Source: Albula goreensis
Lineage: Eukaryota; Chordata; Actinopteri; Albuliformes; Albulidae
Reading direction: 5' to 3'
Length of the DNA stretch: 64,000 nt
NCBI GenBank assembly: GCA_022829145.1
Contig: CM040758.1
Span: forward strand, 27,090,575-27,154,574
Shown here: piece by piece, positions 5,332 through 30,939 of the stretch
Numbering within the stretch: the stretch's first letter is position 1
Layout: every line of letters begins with the position of its first letter
Made by a program: the position numbers and the translations under genes
Notes under the pieces: generated by a model
What the model saw: only the letters and a program-made list of their open reading frames with translations
What the model was told of the DNA's origin: nothing
The model's database searches: none

Positions 5332-5619
5332 ATATGCATTCCCAGATATCTGTGGTGAATGGCACCGAGGGAGGTACTCTTAATTTCACTACTGAAGTGA
5401 AAAAAGGGAATTTGAAATACGAAACTGAAACAATAGCGGAAGTCAAAAACAACACGAAAACATGCAATGATCAAAGATTCAGTGGCAGACTGCAGTGGGA
5501 CAGCAGCACTGGATTCTTCTCCATCACTAAGCTGAAGATGGAGGATTCTGGGGTTTACACAGTGCAGAATGATGATGAAAAACAGCAACCAGATTACATT
5601 TATCATCTTTTTGTAAAAG
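5332..5619 (+). CDS. Receptor gene 1, V-like Ig domain exon (copy before the gap)
   Basis: This 288-bp phase 1-1 exon encodes an N-terminal V-like domain of a CD2/SLAM-family receptor, a type I membrane protein used in leukocyte contact. The acceptor is TGTTTCAG and the donor is GTAAGAAC. The product starts DMHSQISVVNGTEGG and ends IYHLFVK. The strands E-F signature FFSITKLKMEDSGVYTV is present. N-glycosylation sequons NGT, NFT and NNT are visible. The paired B and F strand cysteines of ordinary V domains are missing, as is usual for CD2, CD48 and SLAM V domains. The exon is fully open. A near-copy with several 1-bp losses lies at 9544-9825. The family is confident; a specific orthologue cannot be named. 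Confidence 0.87.
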
Positions 5620-6215: not shown

Positions 6216-6392
6216 AATAATCTGCAGTTTGTGTTTTTTTGTTTTGGTCCTGCTTTTTATCACAGAGAGCTGCATTATTCAGACACAAGTCTGATATATG
6301 ATGATATCACAACAATCCGGTTAAAGAGATGAATTCTGGATTCACCTTCTCCATTATGTCTCTTTACAGTTCCTGTGTCAAAGCCCAGTGTT

Positions 6393-7778: not shown

Positions 7779-9186
7779 TAGAACAAGTGCAGATATGGAG
7801 AAGTGAAGGGGTATAAAGGTTATGGAGTTTATCCTGTTACCTTCAGGCCAGCAAGGCCACTGCTGGTGTACTATAGGGAGAGTGACTTCAGGTGAAGTGC
7901 TTCTGTCAAAACACAGCTATGGAGCTATAGAAAATAAAGTGTAAAGATGCAAGTTTAATAATAACTTCTGCTGAGTTTATAAAACATAACGACTGCCCTG
8001 CTTGTTAATGTCAAACAGGGCTACGCACAGGTGCACCCACACACACTTGACTCATTTTAATCTGCACTACTGTGCATGGTTACCACAATGTAGCAAGGAC
8101 TCAACTTCCCAAAACAAACTTTCCTTGGCTTAAGTCCCCATTCTGTTTGAAAATGGTGTCTTTTCTACGTGATGAAGAAAAAAGTTCCAGTAATTATACT
8201 GTGAGTAAGCTGGAACAAACCTCCGTTCACTTTTAATTCACAGCCTACAGTTATTATTTTCGTTATTGGTATTAATTTCTGATTTTGAGTAATTTAGCAT
8301 TTCTGAATACATGGACGTTTTTCTAAAAAAGCCATGACCATTGCATTCACCGCGAGAGAATTGAATATAAAAAGCCAGGAACAAGGGTTTAGATTAGGTG
8401 TGGGTACATCTAAGATTGTTGATTGTAGTGATAATAGTATGTAGGCCTAATGGGATAATACATGGAGGGAATGTTAGCCTATTAAATGGAAATCGTTACT
8501 CACTGTGGGCTGCAGTTGTGCTTCACGCTGTTCGATATTACGTAAAAAGTAAAATGACTCGATCGATGATAACAGTAGTGAACGTGTGCTACCCACAGCA
8601 GCGCAACACGGTCAGCAATAAACATTCGCTGTTATTATGTTCAGAACGCCATTCCAGGCCAACTTCAGTAAATGTTATGTTCGAGAGGAGTTTAGTTATC
8701 ATAATGTCAGTATCATAGAGAGTATTCTAACATATTGCTATATCACGGTGCGGTCTGTTAGAAGTTCAGACCAGGTGAACTTTCTAACAATGGAATAGTT
8801 TTTGCGCACTGTAGTGCGTTAATTTCATCAAACTCCATTGTTGCCACTGAAAAACACATCGTTCAGATGCGTTTTACACGCATCCGGAATCTCTGTGTGT
8901 ACGCGTCGCGGTATTTGGAAAATGCACTCTCCTTTGTTCCAGTATCACCGTCTCTTCACTCCAATGTCCCAATGGAGAGACAGCAGGGAAAGTCTGGGGT
9001 CGCTGGCCGAGTATTTAATGGCCCTACAGACTGAGGCTGCGCAGTCAGTGAGTTCGTGGTTGTGATGAGCTTGTCCTGCTTCCGGACAATTATCTGGAAA
9101 TCGACTGCTGATTATGAAAAATTGATATCCCTTTAGAAATGGCTGCGCCAGCGTCTCTGCCAGTAGGTGTATGGTATTAACAGGTT
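7416..9186. other. 1.77 kb segment present only in the second copy of the duplicated region
   Basis: The flanks on either side match continuous sequence around 4972-4982, so this is an insertion here or a deletion there. No transposase or known gene is visible. The first 60 bases resemble 7261-7320, which suggests part of it is an old local duplication. The second half is richer in CG dinucleotides (around 8840-8920) than its neighbours. Two short open frames (8398-8718, 8838-9065) show no recognisable domain. Confidence 0.6.
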
Positions 9187-9543
9187 TAATTATAATCTCT
9201 CTGTTTCTATGTGCTTGGAAATACTTTGACTCCTGTGTCCCGAAGGCACCAGTAAGTTACAGAGGATTTTTGTTTGTCTGTCATCAACAATGATAACACT
9301 GTAAGAGCAGCCTGTCAGAAATGTCAAATTTTCAGTGTGATCTCACTCAACAAAGTCTGGCTGCAGTATATACAGTATTAAATATATTAGTATATAAAGC
9401 ATGTGCAGTACTGTATAAGTACAGTATAGGCTGATCTCAGAACAGAGCAGGATAATGGCCATTTAAAATGTATTCTGTTATAAACACAGACCCATGTATA
9501 AATGTAATAAAAACATTGACTGATGCTTTTCCATGTGTTTCAG

Positions 9544-9825
9544 ATATGCATTCCCAGATATCTGTGGTGAATGGCACCGAGGAGGTACTCTTAATTTCAC
9601 TACTGAAGTGAAAAAAGGAATTTGAAATACGAAACTGAAACAATAGCGGAAGTCAAAACAACACGAAAACATGCAATGATCAAAGATTCAGTGGCAGACT
9701 GCAGTGGGACAGCAGCACTGGATTCTTCTCCATCACTAAGCTGAAGATGGAGGATTCTGGGGTTTACACAGTGCAGAATGATGATGAAAACAGCAACCAG
9801 ATTACATTTATCATCTTTTGTAAAG
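9544..9825 (+). pseudogene. Receptor gene 1, V-like Ig exon, frameshifted second copy
   Basis: This copy matches 5332-5619 almost base for base but is 6 bp shorter. The losses are single bases in homopolymer runs, for example GAGG for GAGGG, AAAAAAGG for AAAAAAGGG and GATGAAAAC for GATGAAAAAC. Read as written, the domain is out of frame. The splice sites are kept. The pattern fits uncorrected long-read errors at a contig end better than a true pseudogene, so the biological gene probably has one intact V exon here. Confidence 0.75.
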
Positions 9826-10288
9826 GTAAGAACACCGTACTCTCTGTACCGTGTGTGTGGAGTACTTTTAATACAGGTGTTTGAGTCTGTGTGTGTGTGC
9901 ATGTGTGTGTTATATTTGGATGTGTGTTATATAATAAATTTAGCGTTTTGTGTTTGTCTAATATATGTGAATGTGTGTTACATTACAAATGCAGCAGCGT
10001 TTTTGTGTGTGTGTGTGTGTGTCAGTGTATACTGCATGACTAATGTAAATTGGTGTTATTAATAATAATCTGGTTATATTAAAATTATAGTTATTTATTA
10101 AAAAATTGCTTATCCATTTGAACTTAATAGTCGACTGCTCAGGCAACTGCACAGTCGAAAGATAATTTTTTTTTCTTTCTCCATGCTCATATAATCTTAA
10201 ATGATTATAAAATGTGTTTCCCTCATTATCAGGGGAGGGAATTGTGAACCAACATGTGATAAATACATTGTCTGATGATGCTTTTCCA

Positions 10289-10413
10289 GATATGTATTCC
10301 CAGATATCTGTGGTTGATTCGTATTTTATAATGATGGCCGGGTGTGAAAGAGGCAGCGCTTTGGTCCGGCACAGCCATTTGCAGAATGCAGGACAATACA
10401 CCTGCAGTCTCAT
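10289..10413 (+). pseudogene. Relic Ig-domain exon (second copy)
   Basis: This is the counterpart of 6092-6215. Here one frame runs from the V-exon-like start (MYSQISVVDS) through to LQNAGQYTCSL, an F-strand motif, so the two halves are joined in frame. It lacks the core of the domain. A donor site was not found at the expected place, so it is probably not used. Confidence 0.55.
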
Positions 10414-10568
10414 TAGAATAATCTGCAGTTTGTGTTTTTGTTTTGGTCCTGCTTTTTATCACAGAGAGCTGCATTATTCAGACACAAGTCTGATATATGA
10501 TGATATCACAACAATCCGGTTAAAGAGATGAATTCTGGATTCACCTTCTCCATTATGTCTCTTTACAG

Positions 10569-10823
10569 TTCCTGTGTCAAAGCCCAGTGTTACCTACAAT
10601 AAGGACTCCTGCACCATACAATGCACTGTGGACAGAGGGACAGAAGTGACCCTGTCCTGGTACAGGGAGGGGGAGAAGGAGATCTTAGGAACCTCAGGCC
10701 CTCTTAGCACTCCACACCAGAAACTGTCTCAGACTGTGGACAGGAGCGGCACCTACACCTGTGAGGCTGTAAACTCCGTCAGCAGAGAGAGGAGCTCAGT
10801 CATTGTTGGGGAAGAATGTGCAG
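10569..10823 (+). CDS. Receptor gene 1, C2-type Ig domain exon
   Basis: This 255-bp phase 1-1 exon has acceptor TCTTTACAG and donor GTGAGCTT. It encodes the membrane-proximal C2 domain. The product begins VPVSKPSVTYNKDSC and contains the C-strand tryptophan (TLSWYREGE) and the F-strand motif SGTYTCEAVNSVS. Four cysteines (DSC, IQC, YTC, EEC) match the two-disulfide C2 domain of the CD2/SLAM family. It follows the V exon and precedes a 21-bp stalk exon, in the order typical of the family. The first 24 bases occur again just before the assembly gap. Confidence 0.9.
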
Positions 10824-11181: not shown

Positions 11182-11202
11182 ACCTGCCCCCAGTGACCCC
11201 AG
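11182..11202 (+). CDS. Receptor gene 1, 21-bp stalk micro-exon
   Basis: The acceptor is CACCCTAG and the donor GTAAGAAC. The seven codons read roughly DLPPVTP and link the C2 domain to the membrane exon. Phase is 1-1, matching both neighbours. A diverged copy with a broken acceptor lies at 22472. Confidence 0.75.
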
Positions 11203-11354: not shown

Positions 11355-11459
11355 GTGCCAGTGAGGGGTCCAGTCCTTGGCATGCTTTTGGCTTTCTGGT
11401 TTTAGGCTTTGCTCTTGGTGCTGCTTGTACTGTTGTTGTCATCGCCTGTCTGTATGACA
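11355..11459 (+). CDS. Receptor gene 1, transmembrane exon 1
   Basis: This 105-bp phase 1-1 exon follows CCTGCTCAG and ends at a GTAAGTAT donor. It encodes a short extracellular stretch (GASEGSSPWH) and one hydrophobic helix, FGFLVLGFALGAACTVVVIA, then CLYD. There is no charged residue in the helix, so no obvious adaptor-pairing residue. The intron that follows is made entirely of a 75-79 bp minisatellite whose unit repeats the last bases of this exon plus the donor. Confidence 0.85.
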
Positions 11460-14400
11460 GTAAGTATCACTCCTGTTCCTAATCACACACAGAGTCCCTC
11501 TCTGTCAGTAACAGAAGGGTCTGAGTGTCTGTATTACAGTAAGTATCACTCCTGTTCCTAATCACACAGAGTCCCTCTCTGTCAGTAACAGAAGAGTCTG
11601 AGTGTCTGTATTACAGTAAGTATCACTCCTGTTCCTAATCACACACAGAGTCCCTCTCTGTCAGTAACAGAAGGGTCTGAGTGTCTGTATTACAGTATCA
11701 CTCCTGTTCCTAATCACACACAGAGTCCCTCTCTGTCAGTAACAGAAGGGTCTGAGTGTCTGTATTACAGTATCACTCCTGTTCCTAATCACACACAGAG
11801 TCCCTCTCTGTCAGTAACAGAAGGGTCTGAGTGTCTGTATTACAGTATCACTCCTGTTCCTAATCACACACAGAGTCCCTCTCTGTCAGTAACAGAAGGG
11901 TCTGAGTGTCTGTATTACAGTAAGTATCACTCCTGTTCCTAATCACACACAGAGTCCCTCTCTGTCAGTAACAGAAGGGTCTGAGTGTCTGTATTACAGT
12001 ATCACTCCTGTTCCTAATCACACACAGAGTCCTCTCTGTCAGTAACAGAAGGGTCTGAGTGTCTGTATTACAGTATCACTCCTGTTCCTAATCACACACA
12101 GAGTCCTCTCTGTCAGTAACAGAAGGGTCTGAGTGTCTGTATTACAGTAAGTATCACTCCTGTTCCTAATCACACACAGAGTCCCTCTCTGTCAGTAACA
12201 GAAGGGTCTGAGTGTCTGTATTACAGTATCACTCCTGTTCCTAATCACACACAGAGTCCCTCTCTGTCAGTAACAGAAGGGTCTGAGTGTCTGTATTACA
12301 GTATCATCACTCCTGTTCCTAATCACACACAGAGTCCTCTCTGTCAGTAACAGAAGGGTCTGAGTGTCTGTATTACAGTAAGTATCACTCCTGTTCCTAA
12401 TCACACACAGAGTCCCTCTCTGTCAGTAACAGAAGGGTCTGAGTGTCTGTATTACAGTAAGTATCACTCCTGTTCCTAATCACACACAGAGTCCTCTCTG
12501 TCAGTAACAGAAGGGTCTGAGTGTCTGTATTACAGTAAGTATCACTCCTGTTCCTAATCACACACAGAGTCCTCTCTGTCAGTAACAGAAGGGTCTGAGT
12601 GTCTGTATTACAGTATCACTCCTGTTCCTAATCACACACAGAGTCCTCTGTCAGTAACAGAAGGGTCTGAGTGTCTGTATTACCGTACAGTATCACTCCT
12701 GTTCCTAATCACACACAGAGTCCCTCTCTGTCAGTAACAGAAGGGTCTGAGTGTCTGTATTACAGTAAGTATCACTCCTGTTCCTAATCACACACAGAGT
12801 CCCTCTCTGTCAGTAACAGAAGGGTCTGAGTGTCTGTATTACAGTAAGTATCACTCCTGTTCCTAATCACACACAGAGTCCTCTCTGTCAGTAACAGAAG
12901 GGTCTGAGTGTCTGTATTACAGTAAGTATCACTCCTGTTCCTAATCACACACAGAGTCCCTCTCTGTCAGTAACAGAAGGGTCTGAGTGTCTGTATTACA
13001 GTATCACTCCTGTTCCTAATCACACACAGAGTCCCTCTCTGTCAGTAACAGAAGGGTCTGAGTGTCTGTATTACAGTATCACTCCTGTTCCTAATCACAC
13101 ACAGAGTCCCTCTCTGTCAGTAACAGAAGGGTCTGAGTGTCTGTATTACAGTAAGTATCACTCCTGTTCCTAATCACACACAGAGTCCCTCTCTGTCAGT
13201 AACAGAAGAGTCTGAGTGTCTGTATTACAGTAAGTATCACTCCTGTTCCTAATCACACACAGAGTCCTCTCTGTCAGTAACAGAAGGGTCTGAGTGTCTG
13301 TATTACAGTAAGTATCACTCCTGTTCCTAATCACACACAGAGTCCTCTCTGTCAGTAACAGAAGGGTCTGAGTGTCTGTATTACAGTAAGTATCACTCCT
13401 GTTCTTAATCACACACAGAGTCCCTCTCTGTCAGTAACAGAAGGGTCTGAGTGTCTGTATTACAGTAAGTATCACTCCTGTTCCTAATCACACACAGAGT
13501 CCCTCTCTGTCAGTAACAGAAGGGTCTGAGTGTCTGTATTACAGTAAGTATCACTCCTGTTCCTAATCACACACAGAGTCCTCTCTGTCAGTAACAGAAG
13601 GGTCTGAGTGTCTGTATTACAGTAAGTATCACTCCTGTTCCTAATCACACACAGAGTCCCTCTCTGTCAGTAACAGAAGGGTCTGAGTGTCTGTATTACA
13701 GTAAGTATCACTCCTGTTCCTAATCACACACAGAGTCCTCTCTGTCAGTAACAGAAGGGTCTGAGTGTCTGTATTACAGTAAGTATCACTCCTGTTCCTA
13801 ATCACACACAGAGTCCCTCTCTGTCAGTAACAGAAGGGTCTGAGTGTCTGTATTACAGTAAGTATCACTCCTGTTCCTAATCACACACAGAGTCCTCTCT
13901 GTCAGTAACAGAAGGGTCTGAGTGTCTGTATTACAGTATCACTCCTGTTCCTAATCACACACAGAGTCCCTCTCTGTCAGTAACAGAAGGGTCTGAGTGT
14001 CTGTATTACAGTATCACTCCTGTTCCTAATCACACACAGAGTCCTCTCTGTCAGTAACAGAAGGGTCTGAGTGTCTGTATTACAGTAAGTATCACTCCTG
14101 TTCCTAATCACACACAGAGTCCCTCTCTGTCAGTAACAGAAGGGTCTGAGTGTCTGTATTACAGTAAGTATCACTCCTGTTCCTAATCACACACAGAGTC
14201 CCTCTCTGTCAGTAACAGAAGGGTCTGAGTGTCTGTATTACAGTAAGTATCACTCCTGTTCCTAATCACACACAGAGTCCCTCTCTGTCAGTAACAGAAG
14301 GGTCTGAGTGTCTGTATTACAGTAAGTATCACTCCTGTTCCTAATCACACACAGAGTCCCTCTCTGTCAGTAACAGAAGGGTCTGAGTGTCTGTATTACA

Positions 14401-17400
14401 GTAAGTATCACTCCTGTTCCTAATCACACACAGAGTCCTCTCTGTCAGTAACAGAAGGGTCTGAGTGTCTGTATTACAGTAAGTATCACTCCTGTTCCTA
14501 ATCACACACAGAGTCCCTCTCTGTCAGTAACAGAAGGGTCTGAGTGTCTGTATTACAGTAAGTATCACTCCTGTTCCTAATCACACACAGAGTCCCTCTC
14601 TGTCAGTAACAGAAGGGTCTGAGTGTCTGTATTACAGTAAGTATCACTCCTGTTCCTAATCACACACAGAGTCCCTCTCTGTCAGTAACAGAAGGGTCTG
14701 AGTGTCTGTATTACAGTATCACTCCTGTTCCTAATCACACACAGAGTCCCTCTCTGTCAGTAACAGAAGGGTCTGAGTGTCTGTATTACAGTAAGTATCA
14801 CTCCTGTTCCTAATCACACACAGAGTCCCTCTCTGTCAGTAACAGAAGGGTCTGAGTGTCTGTATTACAGTAAGTATCACTCCTGTTCCTAATCACACAC
14901 AGAGTCCCTCTCTGTCAGTAACAGAAGGGTCTGAGTGTCTGTATTACAGTAAGTATCACTCCTGTTCCTAATCACACACAGAGTCCCTCTCTGTCAGTAA
15001 CAGAAGGGTCTGAGTGTCTGTATGACAGTAAGTATCACTCCTGTTCCTAATCACACACAGAGTCCTCTCTGTCAGTAACAGAAGGGTCTGAGTGTCTGTA
15101 TTACAGTAAGTATCACTCCTGTTCCTAATCACACACAGAGTCCCTCCTCTCTGTCAGTAACAGAAGGGTCTGAGTGTCTGTATTACAGTATCACTCCTGT
15201 TCCTAATCACACACAGAGTCCCTCTCTGTCAGTAACAGAAGGGTCTGAGTGTCTGTATTACAGTAAGTATCACTCCTGTTCCTAATCACACACAGAGTCC
15301 CTCTCTGTCAGAAACAGAAGGGTCTGAGTGTCTGTATTACAGTAAGTATCACTCCTGTTCCTAATCACACACAGAGTCCCTCTCTGTCAGTAACAGAAGG
15401 GTCTGAGTGTCTGTATTACAGTAAGTATCACTCCTGTTCCTAATCACACACAGAGTCCCTCTCTGTCAGTAACAGAAGGGTCTGAGTGTCTGTATTACAG
15501 TATCACTCCTGTTCCTAATCACACACAGAGTCCCTCTCTGTCAGTAACAGAAGGGTCTGAGTGTCTGTATTACAGTAAGTATCACTCCTGTTCCTAATCA
15601 CACACAGAGTCCTCTCTGTCAGTAACAGAAGGGTCTGAGTGTCTGTATTACAGTAAGTATCACTCCTGTTCCTAATCACACACAGAGTCCTCTCTGTCAG
15701 TAACAGAAGGGTCTGAGTGTCTGTATTACAGTAAGTATCACTCCTGTTCCTAATCACACACAGAGTCCCTCTCTGTCAGTAACAGAAGGGTCTGAGTGTC
15801 TGTATTACAGTAAGTATCACTCCTGTTCCTAATCACACACAGAGTCCTCTCTGTCAGTAACAGAAGGGTCTGAGTGTCTGTATTACAGTAAGTATCACTC
15901 CTGTTCCTAATCACACACAGAGTCCCTCTCTGTCAGTAACAGAAGGGTCTGAGTGTCTGTATTACAGTAAGTATCACTCCTGTTCCTAATCACACACAGA
16001 GTCCTCTCTGTCAGTAACAGAAGGGTCTGAGTGTCTGTATTACAGTATCACTCCTGTTCCTAATCACACACAGAGTCCCTCTCTGTCAGTAACAGAAGGG
16101 TCTGAGTGTCTGTATTACAGTAAGTATCACTCCTGTTCCTAATCACACACAGAGTCCCTCTCTGTCAGTAACAGAAGGGTCTGAGTGTCTGTATTACAGT
16201 AAGTATCACTCCTGTTCCTAATCACACACAGAGTCCCTCTCTGTCAGTAACAGAAGGGTCTGAGTGTCTGTATTACAGTAAGTATCACTCCTGTTCCTAA
16301 TCACACACAGAGTCCCTCTCTGTCAGTAACAGAAGGGTCTGAGTGTCTGTATTACAGTAAGTATCACTCCTGTTCCTAATCACACACAGAGTCCCTCTCT
16401 GTCAGTAACAGAAGGGTCTGAGTGTCTGTATGACAGTAAGTATCACTCCTGTTCCTAATCACACACAGAGTCCCTCTCTGTCAGTAACAGAAGGGTCTGA
16501 GTGTCTGTATTACAGTATCACTCCTGTTCCTAATCACACACAGAGTCCCTCTCTGTCAGTAACAGAAGGGTCTGAGTGTCTGTATTACAGTAAGTATCAC
16601 TCCTGTTCCTAATCACACACAGAGTCCCTCTCTGTCAGTAACAGAAGGGTCTGAGTGTCTGTATTACAGTAAGTATCACTCCTGTTCCTAATCACACACA
16701 GAGTCCCTCTCTGTCAGTAACAGAAGGGTCTGAGTGTCTGTATTACAGTAAGTATCACTCCTGTTCCTAATCACACACAGAGTCCCTCTCTGTCAGTAAC
16801 AGAAGGGTCTGAGTGTCTGTATTACAGTAAGTATCACTCCTGTTCCTAATCACACACAGAGTCCCTCTCTGTCAGTAACAGAAGGGTCTGAGTGTCTGTA
16901 TTACAGTAAGTATCACTCCTGTTCCTAATCACACACAGAGTCCTCTCTGTCAGTAACAGAAGGGTCTGAGTGTCTGTATTACAGTAAGTATCACTCCTGT
17001 TCCTAATCACACACAGAGTCCCTCTCTGTCAGTAACAGAAGGGTCTGAGTGTCTGTATTACAGTAAGTATCACTCCTGTTCCTAATCACACACAGAGTCC
17101 CTCTCTGTCAGTAACAGAAGGGTCTGAGTGTCTGTATTACAGTAAGTATCACTCCTGTTCCTAATCACACACAGAGTCCTCTCTCTGTCAGTAACAGAAG
17201 GGTCTGAGTGTCTGTATTACAGTAAGTATCACTCCTGTTCCTAATCACACACAGAGTCCCTCTCTGTCAGTAACAGAAGGGTCTGAGTGTCTGTATTACA
17301 GTAAGTATCACTCCTGTTCCTAATCACACACAGAGTCCCTCTCTGTCAGTAACAGAAGGGTCTGAGTGTCTGTATTACAGTAAGTATCACTCCTGTTCCT

Positions 17401-20400
17401 AATCACACACAGAGTCCCTCTCTGTCAGTAACAGAAGGGTCTGAGTGTCTGTATTACAGTAAGTATCACTCCTGTTCCTAATCACACACAGAGTCCCTCT
17501 CTGTCAGTAACAGAAGGGTCTGAGTGTCTGTATTACAGTAAGTATCACTCCTGTTCCTAATCACACACAGAGTCCCTCTCTGTCAGTAACAGAAGGGTCT
17601 GAGTGTCTGTATTACAGTAAGTATCACTCCTGTTCCTAATCACACACAGAGTCCTCTCTGTCAGTAACAGAAGGGTCTGAGTGTCTGTATTACAGTATCA
17701 CTCCTGTTCCTAATCACACACAGAGTCCCTCTCTGTCAGTAACAGAAGGGTCTGAGTGTCTGTATTACAGTATCACTCCTGTTCCTAATCACAGAGTCCC
17801 TCTCTGTCAGTAACAGAAGGGTCTGAGTGTCTGTATTAGTATCACTCCTGTTCCTAATCACACAGAGTCCCTCTCTGTCAGTAACAGAAGGGTCTGAGTG
17901 TCTGTATTACATTACAGTATCACTCCTGTTCCTAATCACACACAGAGTCCCTCTCTGTCAGTAACAGAAGGGTCTGAGTGTCTGTATTACAGTAAGTATC
18001 ACTCCTGTTCCTAATCACACACAGAGTCCCTCTCTGTCAGTAACAGAAGGGTCTGAGTGTCTGTATTACAGTAAGTATCACTCCTGTTCCTAATCACACA
18101 CAGAGTCCTCTCTGTCAGTAACAGAAGGGTCTGAGTGTCTGTATTACAGTAAGTATCACTCCTGTTCCTAATCACACACAGAGTCCCTCTCTGTCAGTAA
18201 CAGAAGGGTCTGAGTGTCTGTATTACAGTAAGTATCACTCCTGTTCCTAATCACACACAGAGTCCCTCTCTGTCAGTAACAGAAGGGTCTGAGTGTCTGT
18301 ATTACAGTAAGTATCACTCCTGTTCCTAATCACACACAGAGTCCCTCTCTGTCAGTAACAGAAGGGTCTGAGTGTCTGTATTACAGTAAGTATCACTCCT
18401 GTTCCTAATCACACACAGAGTCCCTCTCTGTCAGTAACAGAAGGGTCTGAGTGTCTGTATTACAGTAAGTATCACTCCTGTTCCTAATCACACACAGAGT
18501 CCCTCTCTGTCAGTAACAGAAGGGTCTGAGTGTCTGTATTACAGTATCACTCCTGTTCCTAATCACACACAGAGTCCCTCTGTCAGTAACAGAAGGGTCT
18601 GAGTGTCTGTATTACAGTAAGTATCACTCCTGTTCCTAATCACACACAGAGTCCCTCTCTGTCAGTAACAGAAGGGTCTGAGTGTCTGTATTACAGTAAG
18701 TATCACTCCTGTTCCTAATCACACACAGAGTCCCTCTCTGTCAGTAACAGAAGGGTCTGAGTGTCTGTATTACAGTAAGTATCACTCCTGTTCCTAATCA
18801 CACACAGAGTCCCTCTCTGTCAGTAACAGAAGGGTCTGAGTGTCTGTATTACAGTAAGTATCACTCCTGTTCCTAATCACACACAGAGTCCCTCTCTGTC
18901 AGTAACAGAAGGGTCTGAGTGTCTGTATACAGTAAGTATCACTCCTGTTCCTAATCACACACAGAGTCCTCTCTGTCAGTAACAGAAGGGTCTGAGTGTC
19001 TGTATTACAGTATCACTCCTGTTCCTAATCACACACAGAGTCCCTCTCTGTCAGTAACAGAAGGGTCTGAGTGTCTGTATTACAGTAAGTATCACTCCTG
19101 TTCCTAATCACACACAGAGTCCCTCTCTGTCAGTAACAGAAGGGTCTGAGTGTCTGTATTACAGTAGTATCACTCCTGTTCCTAATCACACACAGAGTCC
19201 TCTCTGTCAGTAACAGAAGAAGGGTCTGAGTGTCTGTATTACTAAGTATCACTCCTGTTCCTAATCACACACAGAGTCCCTCTCTGTCAGTAACAGAAGG
19301 GTCTGAGTGTCTGTATTACAGTATCACTCCTGTTCCTAATCACACACAGAGTCCCTCTCTGTCAGTAACAGAAGGGTCTGAGTGTCTGTATTACAGTAAG
19401 TATCACTCCTGTTCCTAATCACACACAGAGTCCCTCTCTGTCAGTAACAGAAGGGTCTGAGTGTCTGTATTACAGTAAGTATCACTCCTGTTCCTAATCA
19501 CACACAGAGTCCCTCTCTGTCAGTAACAGAAGGGTCTGAGTGTCTGTATCACTCCTGTTCCTAATCACACACAGAGTCCCTCTCTGTCAGTAACAGAAGG
19601 GTCTATCACAGTAAGTATCACTCCTGTTCCTAATCACACACAGAGTCCCTCTCTGTCAGTAACAGAAGGGTCTGAGTGTCTGTATTACAGTAAGTATCAC
19701 TCCTGTTCCTAATCACACACAGAGTCCCTCTCTGTCAGTAACAGAAGGGTCTGAGTGTCTGTATTACAGTATCACTCCTGTTCCTAATCACACACAGAGT
19801 CCCTCTCTGTCAGTAACAGAAGGGTCTGAGTGTCTTTATTACAGTATCACTCCTGTTCCTAATCACACACAGAGTCCCTCTCTGTCAGTAACAGAAGGGT
19901 CTGAGTGTCTGTATTACAGTATCACTCCTGTTCCTAATCACACACAGAGTCCCTCTCTGTCAGTAACAGAAGGGTCTGAGTGTCTGTATTACAGTAAGTA
20001 TCACTCCTGTTCCTAATCACACACAGAGTCCCTCTCTGTCAGTAACAGAAGGGTCTGAGTGTCTGTATTACAGTAAGTATCACTCCTGTTCCTAATCACA
20101 CACAGAGTCCTCTCTGTTAGTAACAGAAGGGTCTGAGTGTCTGTATTACAGTAAGTATCACTCCTGTTCCTAATCACACACAGAGTCCCTCTCTGTCAGT
20201 AACAGAAGGGTCTGAGTGTCTGTATTACAGTAAGTATCACTCCTGTTCCTAATCACACACAGAGTCCCTCTCTGTCAGTAACAGAAGGGTCTGAGTGTCT
20301 GTATTACAGTAAGTATCACTCCTGTTCCTAATCACACACAGAGCCCCTCTCTGTCAGTAACAGAAGGGTCTGAGTGTCTGTATTACAGTAAGTATCACTC

Positions 20401-20463
20401 CTGTTCCTAATCACACACAGAGTCCCTCTCTGTCAGTAACAGAAGGGTCTGAGTGTCTGTATA
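11460..20463. repeat. Intronic minisatellite, 75-79 bp unit, about 115 copies, with splice-site-like motifs in each unit
   Basis: The array starts at the first base of the intron after TM exon 1. A full 79-bp unit runs from GTAAGTATCACTCC, through TTCCTAATCACACAC and CCCTCTCTGTCAG, to GTGTCTGTATTACA. Length classes differ by loss of four bases at the AGTAAGTA donor motif (75 bp) and by CCCTCT versus CCTCT. Two units (near 15025 and 16433) carry TATGACA before the donor, exactly as in TM exon 1. Copies are highly uniform, which points to recent expansion. The unit count is estimated from span divided by unit length. Confidence 0.97.
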
Positions 20464-21405
20464 ACAATAAGTGAGTCATGACTGCAAGTCTGTATTTCAG
20501 CTAGGGTTACATTTCATTTTAAGATATCCATAATTATTCTTTTAATAATGCCTAAGGTATGAATTACAAATTGTAGGCTATATCACATGGCAATTTTCCA
20601 GCAACAAGTTTTGAAATAATTATCCAGCAGGGAGAGACAATGCTTCTGCTTCTTAATGCTCATTCGCAAGTGATAACACTGAATTTTACAGACGAAAAAC
20701 CGTATATGCACATATTATCCATTTTGTGTTCTGTTCATTAAATGTTTCTCTTGTTTAGACTGTATATCACAATAGTATACTAAACTGATATATAGATTGA
20801 CAAAAAATATGCTCAAAATCTATCAGTGATTGAGTAATCAGTGCTGAAAAACAGCTATAGATTTCATTGCCTAGAAAGGGCCAAAGTGAGGGTAAACTCC
20901 TCATGGGTTTAGAGTTACTCAACACAAAAGATACTTCAGCTAGGAACCTAAAATTAGGATTTTGCTCAACACACTCATAGTTTTACCCGTACACCAAAAA
21001 ATCGTGAAAATCTGAGGGTGTCAGACAGGGAAACTAGAAGATTTCTAATGGAATACTCCATGTGTAGCCCTGACAATGAAAATGCACACCAGCAATTCAT
21101 AACCGATGTCATGACTGTTGAAAATGAAACTGAAAATGTGCTCATTTTTATTGTGGTGTGGATATGGCCCCATCTTTATAGCATTTTTGAAATTTGATGT
21201 AGTCATTTCAAAATGGATTCATTTTTCAATTTTGAAGTTCCGTCATTTGGTCTACCCCCTGTAGAACTGGATTTAATGCATTTGAAAAGGTTTGAGATGA
21301 CTTGCATTATTTCTTCACACTGATGATAAAAATGGTTTTCACAGTCCTCAATCAATAAGGGTGCCAGTGCTGTTAATTTTAAAATTTCAAATGCAGTATA
21401 TCTGT
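20464..21405. other. Unique intronic sequence between arrays
   Basis: AT-rich sequence with no open frame, RNA gene or transposon that I recognise. Confidence 0.5.
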
Positions 21406-21780
21406 GTAGAGCAGTGCTACACTGTGCAGTTTAACTATGTTTAGAGCAGTGTTACGCTGTGCAGTGTAACTCTGTAGAGCAGTGTTACGCTGTGCAGTGT
21501 AACTCTGTAGAGCAGTGTTACACTGTGCAGTGTAACTCTGTAGAGCAGTGTTACGCTGTGCAGTGTAACTCTGTAGGGCAGTGTTACGCTGTGCAGTGTA
21601 ACTCTGTAGAGCAGTGTTACGCTGTGCAGTGTAATTCTGTAGAGCAGTGTTACGCTGTGCAGTGTAACTCTGTAGAGCAGTGTTACGCTGTGCAGTGTAG
21701 CTCTGTAGAGCAGTGTTACGCTGTGCAGTGTAATTCTGTAGAGCAGTGTTACGCTGTGCAGTTTAACTCTGTGGAGAGCA
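21406..21780. repeat. Minisatellite, 33 bp unit, about 11 copies
   Basis: The unit contains GAGCAGTGTTACGCTGTGCA followed by GTGTAACTCTGTA. As 33 is a multiple of three, one frame stays open and reads as an 11-residue repeat (QCYAVQCNSVE). I see no start context or splice sites supporting translation. Confidence 0.95.
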
Positions 21781-22471
21781 GTGTAAGTCTGTGTAGTGTA
21801 ACTATGTTTAGAGCAGTGTAACTACAGTGTATCTCTGTGTAGGTCAGAGCAACATTGTGTAGTGTGAATCTTTCTATATAGAGAAGTGTACTTCTGTGGA
21901 CTGTAACCCTGTGCAAATCAGCTTTATTCAGCTATAGTGTAACTGTAACAAACACTAGCACTCCAACAGTAAAGTAAAATAATAAACATAGTCCATTACC
22001 AACACAGAGTGATAACTGAGTAAAAATACAATGTTACACTTTGGCCTCATGGTGTTTCCATGCCATTTGTTTAGCATCAGGTTGAAATGTTTGGATTTTC
22101 AGGGACCAGTGGACCAGTGTTAGGGAAAAAAGCTCAGTTGCACAGCAATCCCCTCCAATGGTTTAAATTATGAAAAAATAAAGTGAAAGTACACAAGTGA
22201 GTGTTTTTGAAAAGGGGAACACAAATTGAAATGATACATTTTCATCAATATCAACACAAACAATAATTAATATGGATCAGTAAGTAAAGTGAGTGAAAAG
22301 GTACTGTAGGGAGCACAGCAGGTATTAGGGCTGTTTTCTTCTTGGGTGTATAATACGTCACTGTAACTGTACCATGTTTCTGTGACCTCTCCATACCACA
22401 GTCTTTATTCTGATGTTACCCTCACAGTGTTACTGATCATTCATTTCTTGTGTTTTATCATGTGACCCTGG
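21781..22471. other. Non-coding intronic stretch
   Basis: The first part is decayed 33-bp repeat. From about 22360 the sequence is a diverged copy of 11085-11181 (shared ACCTCTCCATACCACAGT and CTCACAGTGTTACTGATCAT), the intron preceding the stalk exon. Confidence 0.65.
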
Positions 22472-22493
22472 ACCTGCTCCTGTGGACTCCTGG
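22472..22493 (+). pseudogene. Second stalk exon copy, acceptor lost
   Basis: This is the counterpart of 11182-11202. The acceptor AG has become GG (GACCCTGG for CACCCTAG) and the segment is 22 instead of 21 bp. The donor GTAAGAAC is kept. It is unlikely to be spliced in. Confidence 0.7.
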
Positions 22494-22625
22494 GTAAGAA
22501 CTCCATTAATCTTCCACGTCTCCACAAAAAACATAAAGAATTGAAAGGGCTGGAATACTTTAGCTCATAACACATTTGCAGAGAATATTCAGCCCTTTGA
22601 CCACTGTTTTCTTTCCCCTTCTAAG

Positions 22626-22703
22626 GTGGCAATACAGGATGCAATTCATGCTTCATCAAAATCTGTGTACCTATTTCTGTCTTCATCGCCTGTCTGTGTT
22701 GCC
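22626..22703 (+). CDS. Receptor gene 1, second transmembrane exon copy
   Basis: This 78-bp exon has acceptor CCCTTCTAAG and donor GTAAGTAT and is phase 1-1 like TM exon 1. It encodes GGNTGCNSC and then FIKICVPISVFIACLCC. It shares the end (ATCGCCTGTCTGT) and the flanking introns with TM exon 1 but is 27 bp shorter. The hydrophobic run is short and includes one lysine, so it may be a weak membrane anchor. Both splice sites look good, so it could be an alternative or additional exon; it could also be a relic, since its stalk exon has lost the acceptor. Confidence 0.6.
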
Positions 22704-25700
22704 GTAAGTATCACTCCTGTTCCTAATCACACACAGAGTCCCTCTCTGTCAGTAACAGAAGGGTCTGAGTGTCTGTATTACAGTAAGTATCACTCCTGTT
22801 CCTAATCACACACAGAGTCCCTCTCTGTCAGTAACAGAAGGGTCTGAGTGTCTGTATTACAGTATCACTCCTGTTCCTAATCACACACAGAGTCCCTCTC
22901 TGTCAGTAACAGAAGGGTCTGAGTGTCTGTATTACAGTATCACTCCTGTTCCTAATCACACACAGAGTCCCTCTCTGTCAGTAACAGAAGGGTCTGAGTG
23001 TCTGTATTTCAGTATCATTCCTGTTCCTAATCACACACAGAGTCCCTCTCTGTCAGTAACAGAAGGGTCTGAGTGTCTGTATTACAGTAAGTATCACTCC
23101 TGTTCCTAATCACACACAGAGACCCTCTCTGTCAGTAACTGAAGGGTCTGAGTGTCTGTATTACAGTATCACTCCTGTTCTTAATCACACACAGAGTCCC
23201 TCTCTGTCAGTAACAGAAGGGTCTGAGTGTCTGTATTACAGTAAGTATCACTCCTGTTCCTAATCACACACAGAGTCCTCTCTGTCAGTAACAGAAGGGT
23301 CTGAGTGTCTGTATTACAGTATCACTCCTGTTCTTAATCACACACAGAGTCCTCTCTGTCAGTAACAGAAGGGTCTGAGTGTCTGTATTACAGTAAGTAT
23401 CACTCCTGTTCCTAATCACACACAGAGTCCCTCTCTGTCAGTAACAGAAGGGTCTGAGTGTCTGTATTACAGTAAGTATCACTCCTGTTCCTAATCACAC
23501 ACAGAGTCCCTCTCTGTCAGTAACAGAAGGGTCTGAGTGTCTGTATTACAGAAAGTATCACTCCTGTTCCTAATCACACACAGAGTCCCTCTCTGTCAGT
23601 AACAGAAGGGTCTGAGTGTCTGTATTACAGTATCACTCCTGTTCCTAATCACACACAGAGTCCCTCTCTGTCAGTAACAGAAGGGTCTGAGTGTCTGTAT
23701 TACAGTAAGTATCACTCCTGTTCCTAATCACACACAGAGTCTCTCTCTGCCAGTAACAGAAGGGTCTGAGTGTCTGTATTACAGTAAGTATCACTCCTGT
23801 TCCTAATCACACACAGAGTCCCTCTCTGTCAGTAACAGAAGGGTCTGAGTGTCTGTATTACAGTAAGTATCACTCCTGTTCCTAATCACACACAGAGTCC
23901 CTCTCTGTCAGTAACAGAAGGGTCTGAGTGTCTGTATTACAGTATCACTCCTGCTCCTTATCACACACAGAGTCCCTGTCTGTCAGTAACAGAAGGGTCT
24001 GAGTGTCTGTATTACAGTAAGTATCACTCCTGTTCCTAATCACACACAGAGTCCCTCTCTGTCAGTAACAGAAGGGTCTGAGTGTCTGTATTACAGAAAG
24101 TATCACTCCTGTTCCTAATCACACACAGAGTCCCTCTCTGTCAGTAACAGAAGGGTCTGAGTGTCTGTATTACAGTATCACTCCTGTTCCTAATCACACA
24201 CAGAGTCCCTCTCTGTCAGTAACAGAAGGATCTGAGTGTCTGTATTACAGTAAGTATCACTCCTGTTCCTAATCACACACAGAGTCCTCTCTGTCAGTAA
24301 CAGAAGGGTCTGAGTGTCTGTATTACAGTATCACTCCTGTTCCTAATCACACACAGAGTCCCTCTCTGTCAGTAACAGAAGGGTCTGAGTGTCTGTATTA
24401 CAGTATCACTCCTGTTCCTAATCACACACAGAGTCCTCTCTGTCAGTAACAGAAGGGTCTGAGTGTCTGTATTGCAGTAAGTATCACTCCTGTTCCTAAT
24501 CACACACAGAGTCCCTCTCTGTCAGTAACAGAAGGGTCTGAGTGTCTGTATTACAGTAAGTATCACTCCTGTTCCTAATCACACACAGAGTCCCTCTCTG
24601 TCAGTAACAGAAGGGTCTGAGTGTCTGTATTACAGTAAGTATCACTCCTGTTCCTAATCACACACAGAGTCCCTCTCTGTCAGTAACAGAAGGGTCTGAG
24701 TGTCTGTATTGCCGTAAGTATCACTCCTGTTCCTAATCACACACAGAGTCCCTCTCTGTCAGTAACAGAAGGGTCTGAGTGTCTGTATTACAGTAAGTAT
24801 CACTCCTGTTCCTAATCACACACAGAGTCCCTCTCTGTCAGTAACAGAAGGGTCTGAGTGTCTGTATTACAGTATCACTCCTGTTCCTAATCACACACAG
24901 AGTCCCTCTCTGTCAGTAACAGAAGGGTCTGAGTGTCTGTATTTCAGTATCATTCCTGTTCCTAATCACACACAGAGTCCCTCTCTGTCAGTAACAGAAG
25001 GGTCTGAGTGTCTGTATTACAGTAAGTATCACTCCTGTTCCTCATCACACACAGAGACCCTCTCTGTCAGTAACAGAAGGGTCTGAGTGTCTGTATTACA
25101 GTAAGTATCACTCCTGTTCCTAATCACACACAGAGGCCCTCTCTGTCAGTAACAGAAGGGTCTGAGTGTCTGTATTGCCGTAAGTATCACTCCTGTTCCT
25201 AATCACACACAGAGTCCCTCTCTGTCAGTAACAGAAGGGTCTGAGTGTCTGTATTACAGTAAGTATCACTCCTGTTCCTAATCACACACAGAGTCCTCTC
25301 TGTCAGTAACAGAAGGGTCTGAGTGTCTGTATTGCCGTAATTATCACTCCTGTTCCTAATCACACACAGAGTCCCTCTCTGTCAGTAACAGAAGGGTCTG
25401 AGTGTATGTATTACAGTAAGTATCACTCCTGTTCCTAATCACACACAGAGTCCCTCTCTGTCAGTAACAGAAGGGTCTGAGTGTCTGTATTGCCGTAAGT
25501 ATCACTCCTGTTCCTAATCACACACAGAGTCCCTCTCTGTCAGTAACAGAAGGGTCTGAGTGTCTGTATTACAGTAAGTATCACTCCTGTTCCTAATCAC
25601 ACAGAGTCCCTCTCTGTCAGTAACAGAAGGGTCTGAGTGTCTGTATTTCAGTATCATTCCTGTTCCTAATCACACACAGAGTCCCTCTCTGTCAGTAACA

Positions 25701-27742
25701 GAAGGGTCTGAGTGTCTGTATTACAGTAAGTATCACTCCTGTTCCTCATCACACACAGAGACCCTCTCTGTCAGTAACAGAAGGGTCTGAGTGTCTGTAT
25801 TACAGAAGGGTATCACTCCTGTTCTTAATCACACACAGAGTCCCTCTCTGTCAGTAACAGAAGGGTCTGAGTGTCTGTATTACAGTAAGTATCACTCCTG
25901 TTCCTAATCACACACAGAGTCCCTCTCTGTCAGTAACAGAAGGGTCTGAGTGTCTGTATTACAGTATCACTCCTGTTCTTAATCACACACAGAGTCCCTC
26001 TCTGTCAGTAACAGAAGGGTCTGAGTGTCTGTATTACAGTAAGTATCACTCCTGTTCCTAATCACACACAGAGTCCCTCTCTGTCAGTAACAGAAGGGTC
26101 TGAGTGTCTGTATTACAGTATCACTCCTGTTCCTAATCACACACAGAGTCCCTCTGTCAGTAACAGAAGGGTCTGAGTGTCTGTATTACAGTATCACTCC
26201 TGTTCCTAATGACACACAGAGTCCCTCTCTGTCAGTAACAGAAGGGTCTGAGTGTCTGTATTACAGTAAGTATCACTCCTGTTCCTAATCACACACAGAG
26301 TCCTCTCTGTCAGTAACAGAAGGGTCTGAGTGTCTGTATTACAGTAAGTATCACTCCTGTTCCTAATCACACACAGAGTCCCTCTCTGTCAGTAACAGAA
26401 GGGTCTGAGTGTCTGTATTACAGTAAGTATCACTCCTGTTCCTAATCACACACAGAGTCCCTCTCTGTCAGTAACAGAAGGGTCTGAGTGTCTGTGTTAC
26501 AGTAAGTATCACTCCTGTTCCTAATCACACACAGAGTCCTCTCTGTCAGTAACAGAAGGGTCTGAGTGTCTGTATTACAGTAAGTATCACTCCTGTTCCT
26601 CATCACACACAGAGTCCCTCTCTGTCAGTAACAGAAGGGTCTGAGTGTCTGTATTACAGTAAGTATCACTCCTGTTCCTAATCACACACAGAGTCCCTCT
26701 CTGTCAGTAACAGAAGGGTCTGAGTGTCTGTATTACAGTAAGTATCACTCCTGTTCCTAATCACACACAGAGTCCTCTCTGTCAGTAACAGAAGGGTCTG
26801 AGTGTCTGTATTACAGTATCACTCCTGTTCCTAATCACACACAGAGTCCCTCTCTGTCAGTAACAGAAGGGTCTGAGTGTCTGTATTACAGTAAGTATCA
26901 CTCCTGTTCCTAATCACACACAGAGTCCTCTCTGTCAGTAACAGAAGGGTCTGAGTGTCTGTATTACAGTAAGTATCACTCCTGTTCCTAATCACACACA
27001 GAGTCCCTCTCTGTTAGTAACAGAAGGGTCTGAGTGTCTGTATTACAGTATCACTCCTGTTCCTAATCACACACAGAGTCCCTCTCTGTCAGTAACAGAA
27101 GGGTCTGAGTGTCTGTATTACAGTAAGTATCACTCCTGTTCCTAATCACACACAGAGTCCTCTCTGTCAGTAACAGAAGGGTCTGAGTGTCTGTATTACA
27201 GTAAGTATCACTCCTGTTCCTAATCACACACAGAGTCCTCTCTGTCAGTAACAGAAGGGTCTGAGTGTCTGTATTACAGTATCACTCCTGTTCCTAATCA
27301 CACACAGAGTCCCTCTCTGTCAGTAACAGAAGGGTCTGAGTGTCTGTATTACAGTAAGTATCACTCCTGTTCCTAATCACACACAGAGTCCTCTCTGTCA
27401 GTAACAGAAGGGTCTGAGTGTCTCTTATTACAGTATCACTCCTGTTCCTAATCACACACAGAGTCCCTCTCTGTCAGTAACAGAAGGGTCTGAGTGTCTG
27501 TATTACAGTATCACTCCTGTTCCTAATCACACACAGAGTCCCTCTCTGTCAGTAACAGAAGGGTCTGAGTGTCTGTATTACAGTAAGTATCACTCCTGTT
27601 CCTAATCACACACAGAGTCCCTCTCTGTCAGTAACAGAAGGGTCTGAGTGTCTGTATTACAGTATCACTCCTGTTCCTAATCACACACAGAGTCCCTCTC
27701 TGTCAGTAACAGAAGGGTCTGAGTGTCTGTATTACAGTAAGT
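22704..27742. repeat. Second intronic minisatellite of the same 75-79 bp unit, about 65 copies
   Basis: The array starts at the donor of TM exon 2. Units match those of 11460-20463. Several units end TATTGCC before the donor (near 24711, 25176, 25334, 25488), like the end of TM exon 2. Others have donor changes (GAAAGTAT near 23552 and 24097). A marked variant, TATTTCAGTATCATTCC, recurs near 23005, 24945 and 25645, so blocks of several units were copied together. Confidence 0.97.
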
Positions 27743-27851
27743 AACTTCATCTTAAATACCTGGTCACATGATCCCATTTCGACTGTGAATGTCTACAGTG
27801 AAGCTTTATCACCTGCATACTGAACTAACTTGGTTGTATTTCTGATTGTAG

Positions 27852-27875
27852 GGAAGAAGAAGCCGATAAATGAAG
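27852..27875 (+). CDS. Receptor gene 1, cytoplasmic exon 1 (24 bp)
   Basis: The acceptor is TGATTGTAG and the donor GTACGTGT, phase 1-1. With the base carried from a TM exon it encodes RKKKPINE, a basic stop-transfer segment expected just inside the membrane. Its upstream flank is similar to that of the exon at 29759, so the two arose by duplication. Confidence 0.75.
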
Positions 27876-29758: not shown

Positions 29759-29788
29759 GGGACACAGAATTTCAGAGAGTCAGCACTG
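29759..29788 (+). CDS. Receptor gene 1, cytoplasmic exon 2 (30 bp)
   Basis: The acceptor is CTCATTTTAG and the donor GTAAGTTG, phase 1-1. It encodes GDTEFQRVST. No tyrosine motif is present. A longer open frame around it (29557-29940) is chance read-through into the introns. Confidence 0.72.
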
Positions 29789-30760: not shown

Positions 30761-30819
30761 GAGAAGTGAATTGCGATGAGCCGAAAGTGACTGTAGGAGG
30801 AGACTCAAACAGCGCAGAG
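30761..30819 (+). CDS. Receptor gene 1, cytoplasmic exon 3 (59 bp)
   Basis: The acceptor is TTTTACCTTAAG and the donor GTGAGTGT; it enters in phase 1 and leaves in phase 0. It encodes GEVNCDEPKVTVGGDSNSAE. There is no tyrosine and therefore no ITIM or ITSM motif, unlike signalling SLAM members. Confidence 0.72.
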
Positions 30820-30918: not shown

Positions 30919-30939
30919 AACAACTGTGACAGGCTTTAA
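30919..30939 (+). CDS. Receptor gene 1, probable terminal coding exon
   Basis: After a 99-bp intron, a strong acceptor (CTCTTTTCCTCACACAG) leads to NNCDRL and a TAA stop at 30937. An alternative acceptor at 31461-31463 (TTTTAATTTCAG) would meet a TAA as the first codon, ending the protein after NSAE. Both give a short tail. Confidence 0.5.
   Translation, partial: NNCDRL

What the first reader, a model, noticed from the sequence alone, without database searches (positions are those of the whole stretch)
11460..20463. Intronic minisatellite in which every full unit looks like a complete 30-nt micro-exon with its own splice signals
Seen: each 79-bp unit has a donor GTAAGTAT, then TTCCTAATC (branch-point-like CTAAT), then CCCTCTCTGTCAG (pyrimidine tract plus AG), then 30 nt from TAACAGAAGGG to CTGTATTACA, then the next donor. 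Entered in phase 1, the phase left by TM exon 1, the 30 nt read ITEGSECLYY with no stop and leave in phase 1, the phase needed by the next real exon. The segment ends CLYY, like CLYD of the TM exon. Inference: some units may be spliced in, adding ten-residue, two-tyrosine blocks just inside the membrane, or the donors and acceptors may act as decoys that slow or redirect splicing. A 49-nt intron between adjacent units is probably too short, but skipping one unit gives about 128 nt. I know of no described receptor with over 100 such potential exons in one intron.
Basis: partly seen in the sequence, partly recalled or inferred. Interest (0 to 1): 0.86.

Follow-up and report, generated by a model that had tools for sequence, protein, structure and literature searches.

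The report
Donor-spanning minisatellite in bonefish immune receptor
In a bonefish immune-receptor gene, the end of one exon and its splice signal appear to have been copied about 180 times into the neighbouring intron, so the repeat looks like a string of tiny exons mainly because it descends from an exon edge; similar human repeats disturb splicing, but whether these copies are ever spliced in is untested.

Summary
The array is real but partly misdescribed. It lies in a putative SLAM/Ly-9-like Ig receptor of Albula goreensis. Two arrays (11447-20472, 22691-27743) share one 79-bp consensus, and each begins inside a transmembrane (TM) exon: the exon's last 13 nt and its donor are the first copy. 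So the donor, the CLYY/CLYD likeness and the exit phase come by descent. "Every full unit" is wrong: 118 of 179 units have acceptor, 30 nt and intact donor. Acceptor-like sites this weak are common, and a 30-nt-type in-frame reading arises in about 11-17% of simulated donor-spanning repeats. New here: 48 units lost AGTA, which destroys the donor but leaves a 75-bp open frame, giving 31 in-phase open acceptor-donor pairs of ordinary exon size (105-255 nt). Inclusion is therefore not excluded. Best reading: an ABCA7/IFI6-type donor-spanning VNTR, mostly removed as intron; use of a downstream donor would add SKYHSCS and a stop. A neighbouring gene has four tandem 33-36-nt candidate tail exons with strong splice sites. 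No transcript data were available, site scores rest on recalled tables, and the genome-wide search for the unit did not complete.

The parts
5332..5619 (+). V-like Ig exon (D1, copy A), open; in database protein P0001
10569..10823 (+). C2-like Ig exon (D2)
   Evidence: (Ig_3 E 1.4e-10)
11182..11202 (+). 21-nt stalk exon; P0001 runs from here into the intron and stops, so it has no TM segment
11355..11459 (+). TM exon 1, ends CLYD, phase 1; its last 13 nt (11447-11459) are the first copy of the repeat
   Evidence: inferred exon, no transcript
11447..20472 (+). Array 1, 79-bp unit, 115 complete units: 84 end GTAAGTAT, 26 end CAGTAT, 81 have acceptor+30 nt+donor
11665..11919 (+). candidate 255-nt in-phase open exon made through donor-less 75-bp units; 205 nt after the TM exon 1 donor
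   Evidence: prediction only
22626..22703 (+). TM-like exon 2 (GNTGCNSCFIKICVPISVFIACLCC), phase 1; last 13 nt begin array 2
   Evidence: upstream flank is 123/149 identical to that of the stalk exon, stalk copy's acceptor broken
22691..27743 (+). Array 2, same consensus, 64 complete units: 38 end GTAAGTAT, 22 end CAGTAT, 37 have acceptor+30 nt+donor
22832..23086 (+). candidate 255-nt in-phase open exon; 128 nt after the TM exon 2 donor
   Evidence: prediction only
27632..27736 (+). candidate 105-nt in-phase open exon; 115 nt before the exon at 27852
   Evidence: prediction only
27852..27875 (+). putative 24-nt tail exon (RKKKPINEG with split codons), phase 1-1
   Evidence: acceptor 7.2, donor 9.2
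29759..29788 (+). putative 30-nt tail exon (GDTEFQRVST), phase 1-1
   Evidence: read; acceptor 10.2, donor 10.7
30761..30819 (+). putative tail exon (GEVNCDEPKVTVGGDSNSAE)
30919..30939 (+). putative last coding exon, NNCDRL and stop

Best explanation
It is a donor-spanning minisatellite. A tandem duplication took in the last 13 nt of the TM exon, its donor and about 66 nt of intron; unequal exchange then amplified it, and the arrays behind the two TM exons were kept alike by exchange. The splice-like look is inherited on the donor side and ordinary sequence on the acceptor side. Most transcripts probably splice from the TM exon's own donor to the exon at 27852 and discard the array. Because 122 of 179 units keep GTAAGTAT, as the TM exon does, a minority of transcripts probably pick a downstream donor, which extends the exon by SKYHSCS and a stop and gives a tail-less or decayed product; array length would then tune receptor output, as VNTR length does in ABCA7. 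Shown: the anatomy, the shared exon tail, the reading frames, the chance-level frequency of splice-like sites in local repeats. Inferred: origin by duplication, exchange between arrays, and everything about splicing.
For: TM exon 1 tail TGTCTGTATGACA and unit tail TGTCTGTATTACA differ at one of 13 positions (TM exon 2 tail at three), and TRF starts both arrays exactly there. Exon-end variants recur inside their own array: ATGACA in units 46 and 64 of array 1 and none of array 2, TTGCC in units 26, 32, 34, 36 of array 2 and none of array 1. Flanks of the two cassettes are 123/149 identical while the commonest 79-bp unit is the same. Outside 11400-27760 the unit has only partial matches, of at most 27 bp in 284 kb and 21 bp in 50 kb more. 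31% (83,073 of 268,000 known bases) is minisatellite, 69 loci. Over 136 array-strands, strong donors in 14 against 16.1 in shuffles, acceptors in 47 against 48.5, both in 6 against 5.3. A paralogue's TM exon has a 69-bp array, repeating its pyrimidine tract, ending 11 nt before it. No excess constraint on the 30-nt segment. Read-through gives CLYDSKYHSCS*. ABCA7 precedent, IFI6 precedent.
Against: In-phase open pseudo-exons (20-300 nt) are 27 and 23 per kb in the arrays against 3 in 9,957 bp of five other intron stretches, and 31 nearest-donor pairs are of ordinary exon size, so inclusion cannot be dismissed. Only 2 of 136 array-strands show the full in-frame arrangement. Putative 24- and 30-nt phase 1-1 exons follow in the same tail. 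No single-copy ancestor was found to show the duplication. Units that resemble TM exon 2's end sit in mid-array, so exchange is inferred, not seen. Site scores use frequency tables recalled from memory. The whole-genome search for the unit did not complete.
Confidence: 0.68

Rival explanations
1. Array-derived exons are really spliced in: 30-nt units, or 105-255-nt exons where 75-bp units lost the donor, adding ITEGSECLYY and SITPVPNHTQSPSLSVTEGSECLYY blocks behind the membrane segment.
For: 118 in-phase open 30-nt pairs and 31 in-phase open 105-255-nt pairs ending at 23 donors; donor 9-mer of the consensus identical to that of TM exon 1; workable introns of 205, 128 and 115 nt next to putative real exons; a neighbouring gene has four tandem 33-36-nt candidate tail exons with introns of 128, 114 and 126 nt.
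Against: Weak named acceptor; no constraint on the segment, though the neighbour's exons show none either (exon identity 0.72-0.94, intron 0.90-0.91); the 75-mer stays open in 62% of shuffles of its intron-like part; 25 other acceptors (16 and 9) lead to a stop before the next donor; no ITIM/ITSM motif by eye. No database protein holds the block, but the same kind of search also missed the neighbour's tail exons, so that absence says little.
Confidence: 0.12
2. The array is inert: the spliceosome ignores it and its length has no effect.
For: Splice-like sites in local minisatellites are at chance level; the TM exon's own donor comes first and has the same 9-mer.
Against: Human ABCA7, with a donor in each unit, shows unit retention and length-dependent exon skipping (passages); IFI6 uses repeat units as donors (a passage of PMC4526556).
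Confidence: 0.15
3. Assembly fault: copy number, the second array or single-base variants are products of an uncertain assembly.
For: 4974-6392 and 9187-10591 differ by 0 mismatches but 16 gap positions over 1,420 columns, beside a 500-N gap; a second piece (4450-4976 against 6894-7416) has 3 mismatches and 22 gap positions over 536: the mark of a false duplication with indel errors.
Against: Array 2 has its own variants in ordered blocks (units 4/29/38, 5/30/39, 7/9/41/43) and its own TM-like exon; the CCC run is shortened in 36 units while the GGG run shows no deletion, unlike random homopolymer error.
Confidence: 0.05

Closest known systems
ABCA7 intron 18 VNTR, human (PMC5954066; passages seen)
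   Same: Minisatellite directly behind an exon, including its donor, so that units start with a donor; an allele of 9,711 bp is reported; use of the next unit's donor leads to a stop.
   Different: 25-bp unit that starts at the GT, not inside the exon; the passages I saw describe no in-phase exon inside the repeat; effects measured there, not here.
IFI6 (6-16, G1P3) minisatellite with multiple splice donor sites (Turri 1995; paper not held; seen as a title in reference lists, and as one sentence of PMC4526556)
   Same: Repeat at an exon end whose units serve as alternative donors.
   Different: By recall a 12-bp unit giving small in-frame extensions; here a later donor means a stop.
CBS 31-bp VNTR (Lievers 2001; not held; title seen in a reference list)
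   Same: By recall, spans an exon-intron boundary and repeats a donor.
   Different: By recall few copies; no open-frame exon claim known to me.
CeRep25B minisatellite of C. elegans (abstract of PMC4039745)
   Same: Intronic minisatellite linked to splicing choices.
   Different: Association of motifs, not copies of an exon edge.
Tandem candidate tail exons of a neighbouring gene (L018 about 7751-8256, minus strand)
   Same: Small phase 1-1 exons in tandem in the same gene cluster.
   Different: Strong sites (consensus acceptor 10.4, donor 11.5), lengths 33, 36, 36, 33, introns 114-128 nt.

Membership tests
Minisatellite / VNTR | Head-to-tail units of roughly 10-100 bp in many copies | tested here: met
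   79 bp, 116.2 and 65.3 copies, 96% and 95% matches
Minisatellite / VNTR | Copy number differs between individuals | not testable with these tools
   one genome only
Donor-spanning splicing VNTR (ABCA7/IFI6/CBS kind) | Array includes the donor of a real exon and repeats it | tested here: met
   both arrays start 13 nt inside an inferred exon; 122 of 179 units end GTAAGTAT
Donor-spanning splicing VNTR (ABCA7/IFI6/CBS kind) | Repeat donors are used, or length alters splicing | not testable with these tools
   no transcripts, no length variants
Tandemly duplicated exon array | Acceptor, open frame of 3n, donor in each unit | tested here: inconclusive
   118 of 179 units for the 30-nt reading; named acceptor below nine putative real ones, its TAACAG alternative above one of them
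Tandemly duplicated exon array | Exon part more conserved than intron part | tested here: not met
   22 substitutions over 30 sites against 31 over 49; low power, since the neighbour's tandem exons do not meet it either
Tandemly duplicated exon array | Exons present in mRNA | not testable with these tools
   no reads; the database protein stops before the TM exon
Recursive (ratchet) splice site | Acceptor AG directly followed by donor GT (recalled) | tested here: not met
   sequence is ACAGTAAGT; AG and GT overlap by one base
ITIM/ITSM tail motif | [SIVL]xYxx[ILV] or TxYxx[VI] (recalled) | tested here: not met
   by eye on CLYYITEG and CLYYSITPV; residue -2 or +3 does not fit
SLAM/CD2-family receptor | V-like plus C2-like domain with sequence likeness to the family | tested here: met
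   of 34 hits several are named Ly-9-like or SLAM-like; CD58, CD48/CD2 chimera and CD2 chains matched across both domains, but the best PDB score is FCRL5
SLAM/CD2-family receptor | ITSM-type signalling tail (recalled) | tested here: not met
   the inferred tail RKKKPINEGDTEFQRVSTGEVNCDEPKVTVGGDSNSAENNCDRL holds no tyrosine (by eye)

The most novel reading that the evidence does not exclude
The two arrays are a latent, length-variable coding repeat: slippage at AGTAAGTA switches a unit between a micro-exon with donor (79 bp) and a read-through coding unit (75 bp, 25 codons, same phase), so that ordinary copy-number change rewrites how many tyrosine-bearing blocks can be spliced behind the membrane segment of an immune receptor, with at least several per cent of transcripts carrying such blocks.
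Probability: 0.09. Interest if true: 0.8.

Novelty: new variant of a known kind. Interest (0 to 1): 0.42.

Why it matters
Donor-spanning VNTRs are known mainly from single human genes, where one (ABCA7) was found to affect splicing, expression and disease risk. Here a far larger repeat, in two arrays with about 180 units, sits at the same kind of place in an immune receptor, carries the TM exon's own donor in two thirds of its units, and is also frame-compatible. It would be a natural test of how a spliceosome deals with more than a hundred competing copies of one donor, and, if any unit is used, of how non-coding slippage turns into protein sequence. The cluster offers comparisons at both ends: an acceptor-side array in a paralogue, and four tandem small exons that look like genuine coding duplications.

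Tried and rejected
Pattern search of the own genome: 0 matches, but I had typed three motifs as if contiguous, so the zero means nothing. Recursive splice site: AG and GT overlap instead of abutting; rejected. ITIM/ITSM in the repeated peptide: rejected by eye. RNA structure of two units: -44.1 kcal/mol, z -1.94, 8 of 200 shuffles as good; not strong enough to build on. Clustering of donor-less units: 9 adjacent pairs against 5.7 expected in array 1 (P 0.07), 6 against 7.2 in array 2 (P 0.83); no conclusion. Purifying selection on the frame: no signal, and the neighbour's exons show none either. Absence from protein databases: rejected as evidence after the parallel search with the neighbour's tail exons also found nothing. 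Homology of the unit to D1 donors of paralogues (short 14-21-bp matches at TACAGTAAGTATCA): noted, taken as consensus donor plus shared VY codons, not pursued. Donor score printed for D1 (-10.0) is a coordinate slip of one base in my script and was dropped; the joined tail was out of frame because the 30-nt exon was taken one base short, and I read the tail from the other frame and.
Full report
WHERE IT IS. The window is G000:C18:27090575-27154574 of a 932-Mb genome. A protein joined from inferred exons matches AGOR_G00194870 of Albula goreensis at 100% over 71% of the query, and that record's contig length, 28,768,000, equals that of C18. The other of the 34 hits are mostly eel, tarpon and bonefish proteins, several named Ly-9-like or SLAM-like. 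PDB matches include FCRL5 (best), CEACAM1, CD58, CD48 and CD2. The database protein P0001 maps to two V-like exons upstream of the window, the V-like exon at 5332 and the C2-like exon at 10569, then runs out of the stalk exon into the intron and stops.

THE ARRAY. TRF gives 11447-20472 (79 bp, 116.2 copies) and 22691-27743 (79 bp, 65.3 copies). I cut them into 115 and 64 complete units. GTAAGTAT closes 84 and 38; CAGTAT closes 26 and 22; TCTGTCAG is in 114 and 62; acceptor + 30 nt + GTAAGTAT is in 81 and 37; exact consensus units are 56 and 15. Peptides of those 118: ITEGSECLYY 76 and 31, the rest single-residue variants.

DESCENT FROM THE EXON EDGE. Both arrays begin 13 nt inside a TM exon. 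TM exon 1 ends TGTCTGTATGACA, the unit TGTCTGTATTACA, TM exon 2 TGTCTGTGTTGCC. The variants of the exon ends recur inside the matching array. The donor 9-mer ACAGTAAGT of the unit is that of TM exon 1. So the donor, the CLYY/CLYD likeness and the exit phase are inherited. The second cassette is a diverged copy of the first: 123 of 149 aligned positions upstream of TM exon 2 agree, and the stalk copy has lost its acceptor, while the arrays keep one consensus. I infer exchange between them; blocks of at least 300 bp are identical between arrays and at least 600 bp within array 1, which units that are mostly consensus could also give.

IS THE MICRO-EXON MORE THAN CHANCE? With recalled human frequency tables the named acceptor scores 4.3; nine putative real acceptors of the gene score 5.0 to 11.5; the TAACAG alternative scores 6.2 and two further AGs of the unit 5.4 and 5.6. 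In 10,956 nt around the arrays, real sites included, 107 of 655 AGs reach 4.35 and 22 of 845 GTs reach 7.0. Simulated units that span a donor give an in-phase open micro-exon in 11.3% (random intron fill) and 16.6% (five other exon ends of this gene, 3.7 to 40.9% each) of cases; the two array-bearing exon ends themselves, over all unit sizes tried, give 51.5 and 49.5%. Over 68 minisatellites within 284 kb, both strands, strong donors, acceptors and their joint presence are at shuffle level: 14, 47, 6 against 16.1, 48.5, 5.3. Only 2 of the 136 strands have the full in-frame arrangement, this array and the neighbour's 162-bp array; that is 2 of the 14 with a strong donor.

Loss of one AGTA from CAGTAAGTATC removes the donor and shortens the unit to 75 bp, which is 25 codons and open in the same phase: SITPVPNHTQSPSLSVTEGSECLYY. 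From each acceptor to the next intact donor there are 118 in-phase open exons of 30 nt and 31 of 105, 180 or 255 nt (15 in array 1, 16 in array 2, ending at 23 donors); 25 other acceptors run into a stop, and two give lengths of 20 and 29 nt. Some lie well: 11665-11919 is 205 nt behind TM exon 1, 22832-23086 is 128 nt behind TM exon 2, 27632-27736 is 115 nt before 27852. This meets the main objection to 30-nt exons, that exons of 51 nt or less tend to be skipped (passages of PMC4317164). Openness itself is weak evidence: 62% of shuffles of the 45-nt part stay open. In-phase open pseudo-exons of 20-300 nt are 27 and 23 per kb in the arrays and 3 in 9,957 bp of five other intron stretches; copy number multiplies whatever one unit offers.

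GEOMETRY. Between neighbouring units the intron would be 49 nt with 22 nt from donor to branch A and 26 nt from there to the acceptor. Human introns of 43 and 49 nt exist but depend on a G-rich enhancer (passages of PMC4463651). Skipping a unit gives 128 nt, like the 114-128-nt introns of the neighbour's tandem exons.

CONTROLS IN THE CLUSTER. (a) In a neighbouring gene on the minus strand, behind a TM-like segment, four units of about 160 bp hold exons of 33, 36, 36 and 33 nt (GNKGLSCQATG, GEQDPLSPSENG, GEQDPLSSPETG, GEQDPFSSEYG), phase 1-1, with acceptor 10.4 and donor 11.5 in the consensus. Their lengths are all multiples of three; but exon identity (0.72-0.94) is not above intron identity (0.90-0.91), and no database protein holds them. 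So they look coding by anatomy only, and 'no constraint' in our array is a weak argument. (b) The TM exon of AGOR_G00194850 has a 69-bp array that repeats its pyrimidine tract and ends 11 nt before the exon: arrays grow at splice edges on either side.

MECHANISM. Shown: anatomy and frames. Inferred: the TM exon's donor is used most; downstream donors compete and, if used, add SKYHSCS and a stop; most of the array leaves as intron. The human ABCA7 VNTR is the model: it includes the exon 18 donor, retention of one 25-bp unit leads to a premature stop, exon 19 skipping rises with length, and expression falls with length; unit retention itself did not change with length (abstract and passages of PMC5954066). 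In IFI6 two repeat units act as donors (a sentence of PMC4526556). I rank this first at 0.68; inert array 0.15; real inclusion 0.12; assembly fault 0.05.

CAUTIONS. No transcripts. Score tables are recalled. The array count rests on one assembly in which 4974-6392 and 9187-10591 look like a false duplication (0 mismatches, 16 gap positions in 1,420 columns) beside the 500-N gap at 6393-6892. The whole-genome search for the unit did not complete, so 'nowhere else' holds for the 334 kb examined, outside 11400-27760.

LITERATURE. Searches; I saw listings, with passages of PMC2572611, PMC2915984, PMC2630376, PMC4463651, PMC4526556, PMC4317164, PMC5954066 and the abstract of PMC4039745. The lists were capped (20 of 58, 10 of 17, 6 of 32). 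None of the listed papers is about this locus; one search lists two papers naming Albula goreensis, which I did not open.

Noticed in passing
L018 about 7751-8256, minus strand (window-relative -161744 to -162249): Four tandem 33-36-nt candidate tail exons, phase 1-1, strong splice sites, introns 114-128 nt, behind a TM-like segment: a better case of tandem small exons than the finding itself.
   Followed up: partly
L007 9225-10000 and L006 1-243, minus strand; TM exon L007 about 9103-9213: A 69-bp minisatellite repeating the pyrimidine tract (14 TGTTCTGCTGT, 10 CTGTATGTAG) ends 11 nt before the TM exon of AGOR_G00194850: an acceptor-side counterpart of the donor-side arrays.
   Followed up: partly
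4450-6392 and 6894-10591, N gap 6393-6892: Near-identical copies of the V-exon region (0 mismatches, 16 gap positions over 1,420 columns in one piece; 3 mismatches, 22 gap positions over 536 in the other), the second with a shifted frame: probably a false duplication in the assembly.
   Followed up: partly
window and L001-L022: About 31% of 268 kb of known sequence is minisatellite (69 loci with period of 10 or more and span of 150 or more).
   Followed up: yes
L004 about 8707-8861, minus strand: A 24-bp coding repeat (QNKSDSGG four times) inside the V-like exon of a paralogue, just before its donor.
   Followed up: no
1550-3865: A 52-bp array shares an 18-of-20 match (CAGTGTCTCTCTCTGTCAGT) with the pyrimidine tract of the 79-bp unit.
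   Followed up: no
protein P0008 (Albula glossodonta JZ751_012926): A predicted bonefish Ig protein starts with a translated repeat (LHPVKALLQCVDGPH), either a minisatellite taken for coding sequence or a real coding repeat.
   Followed up: no
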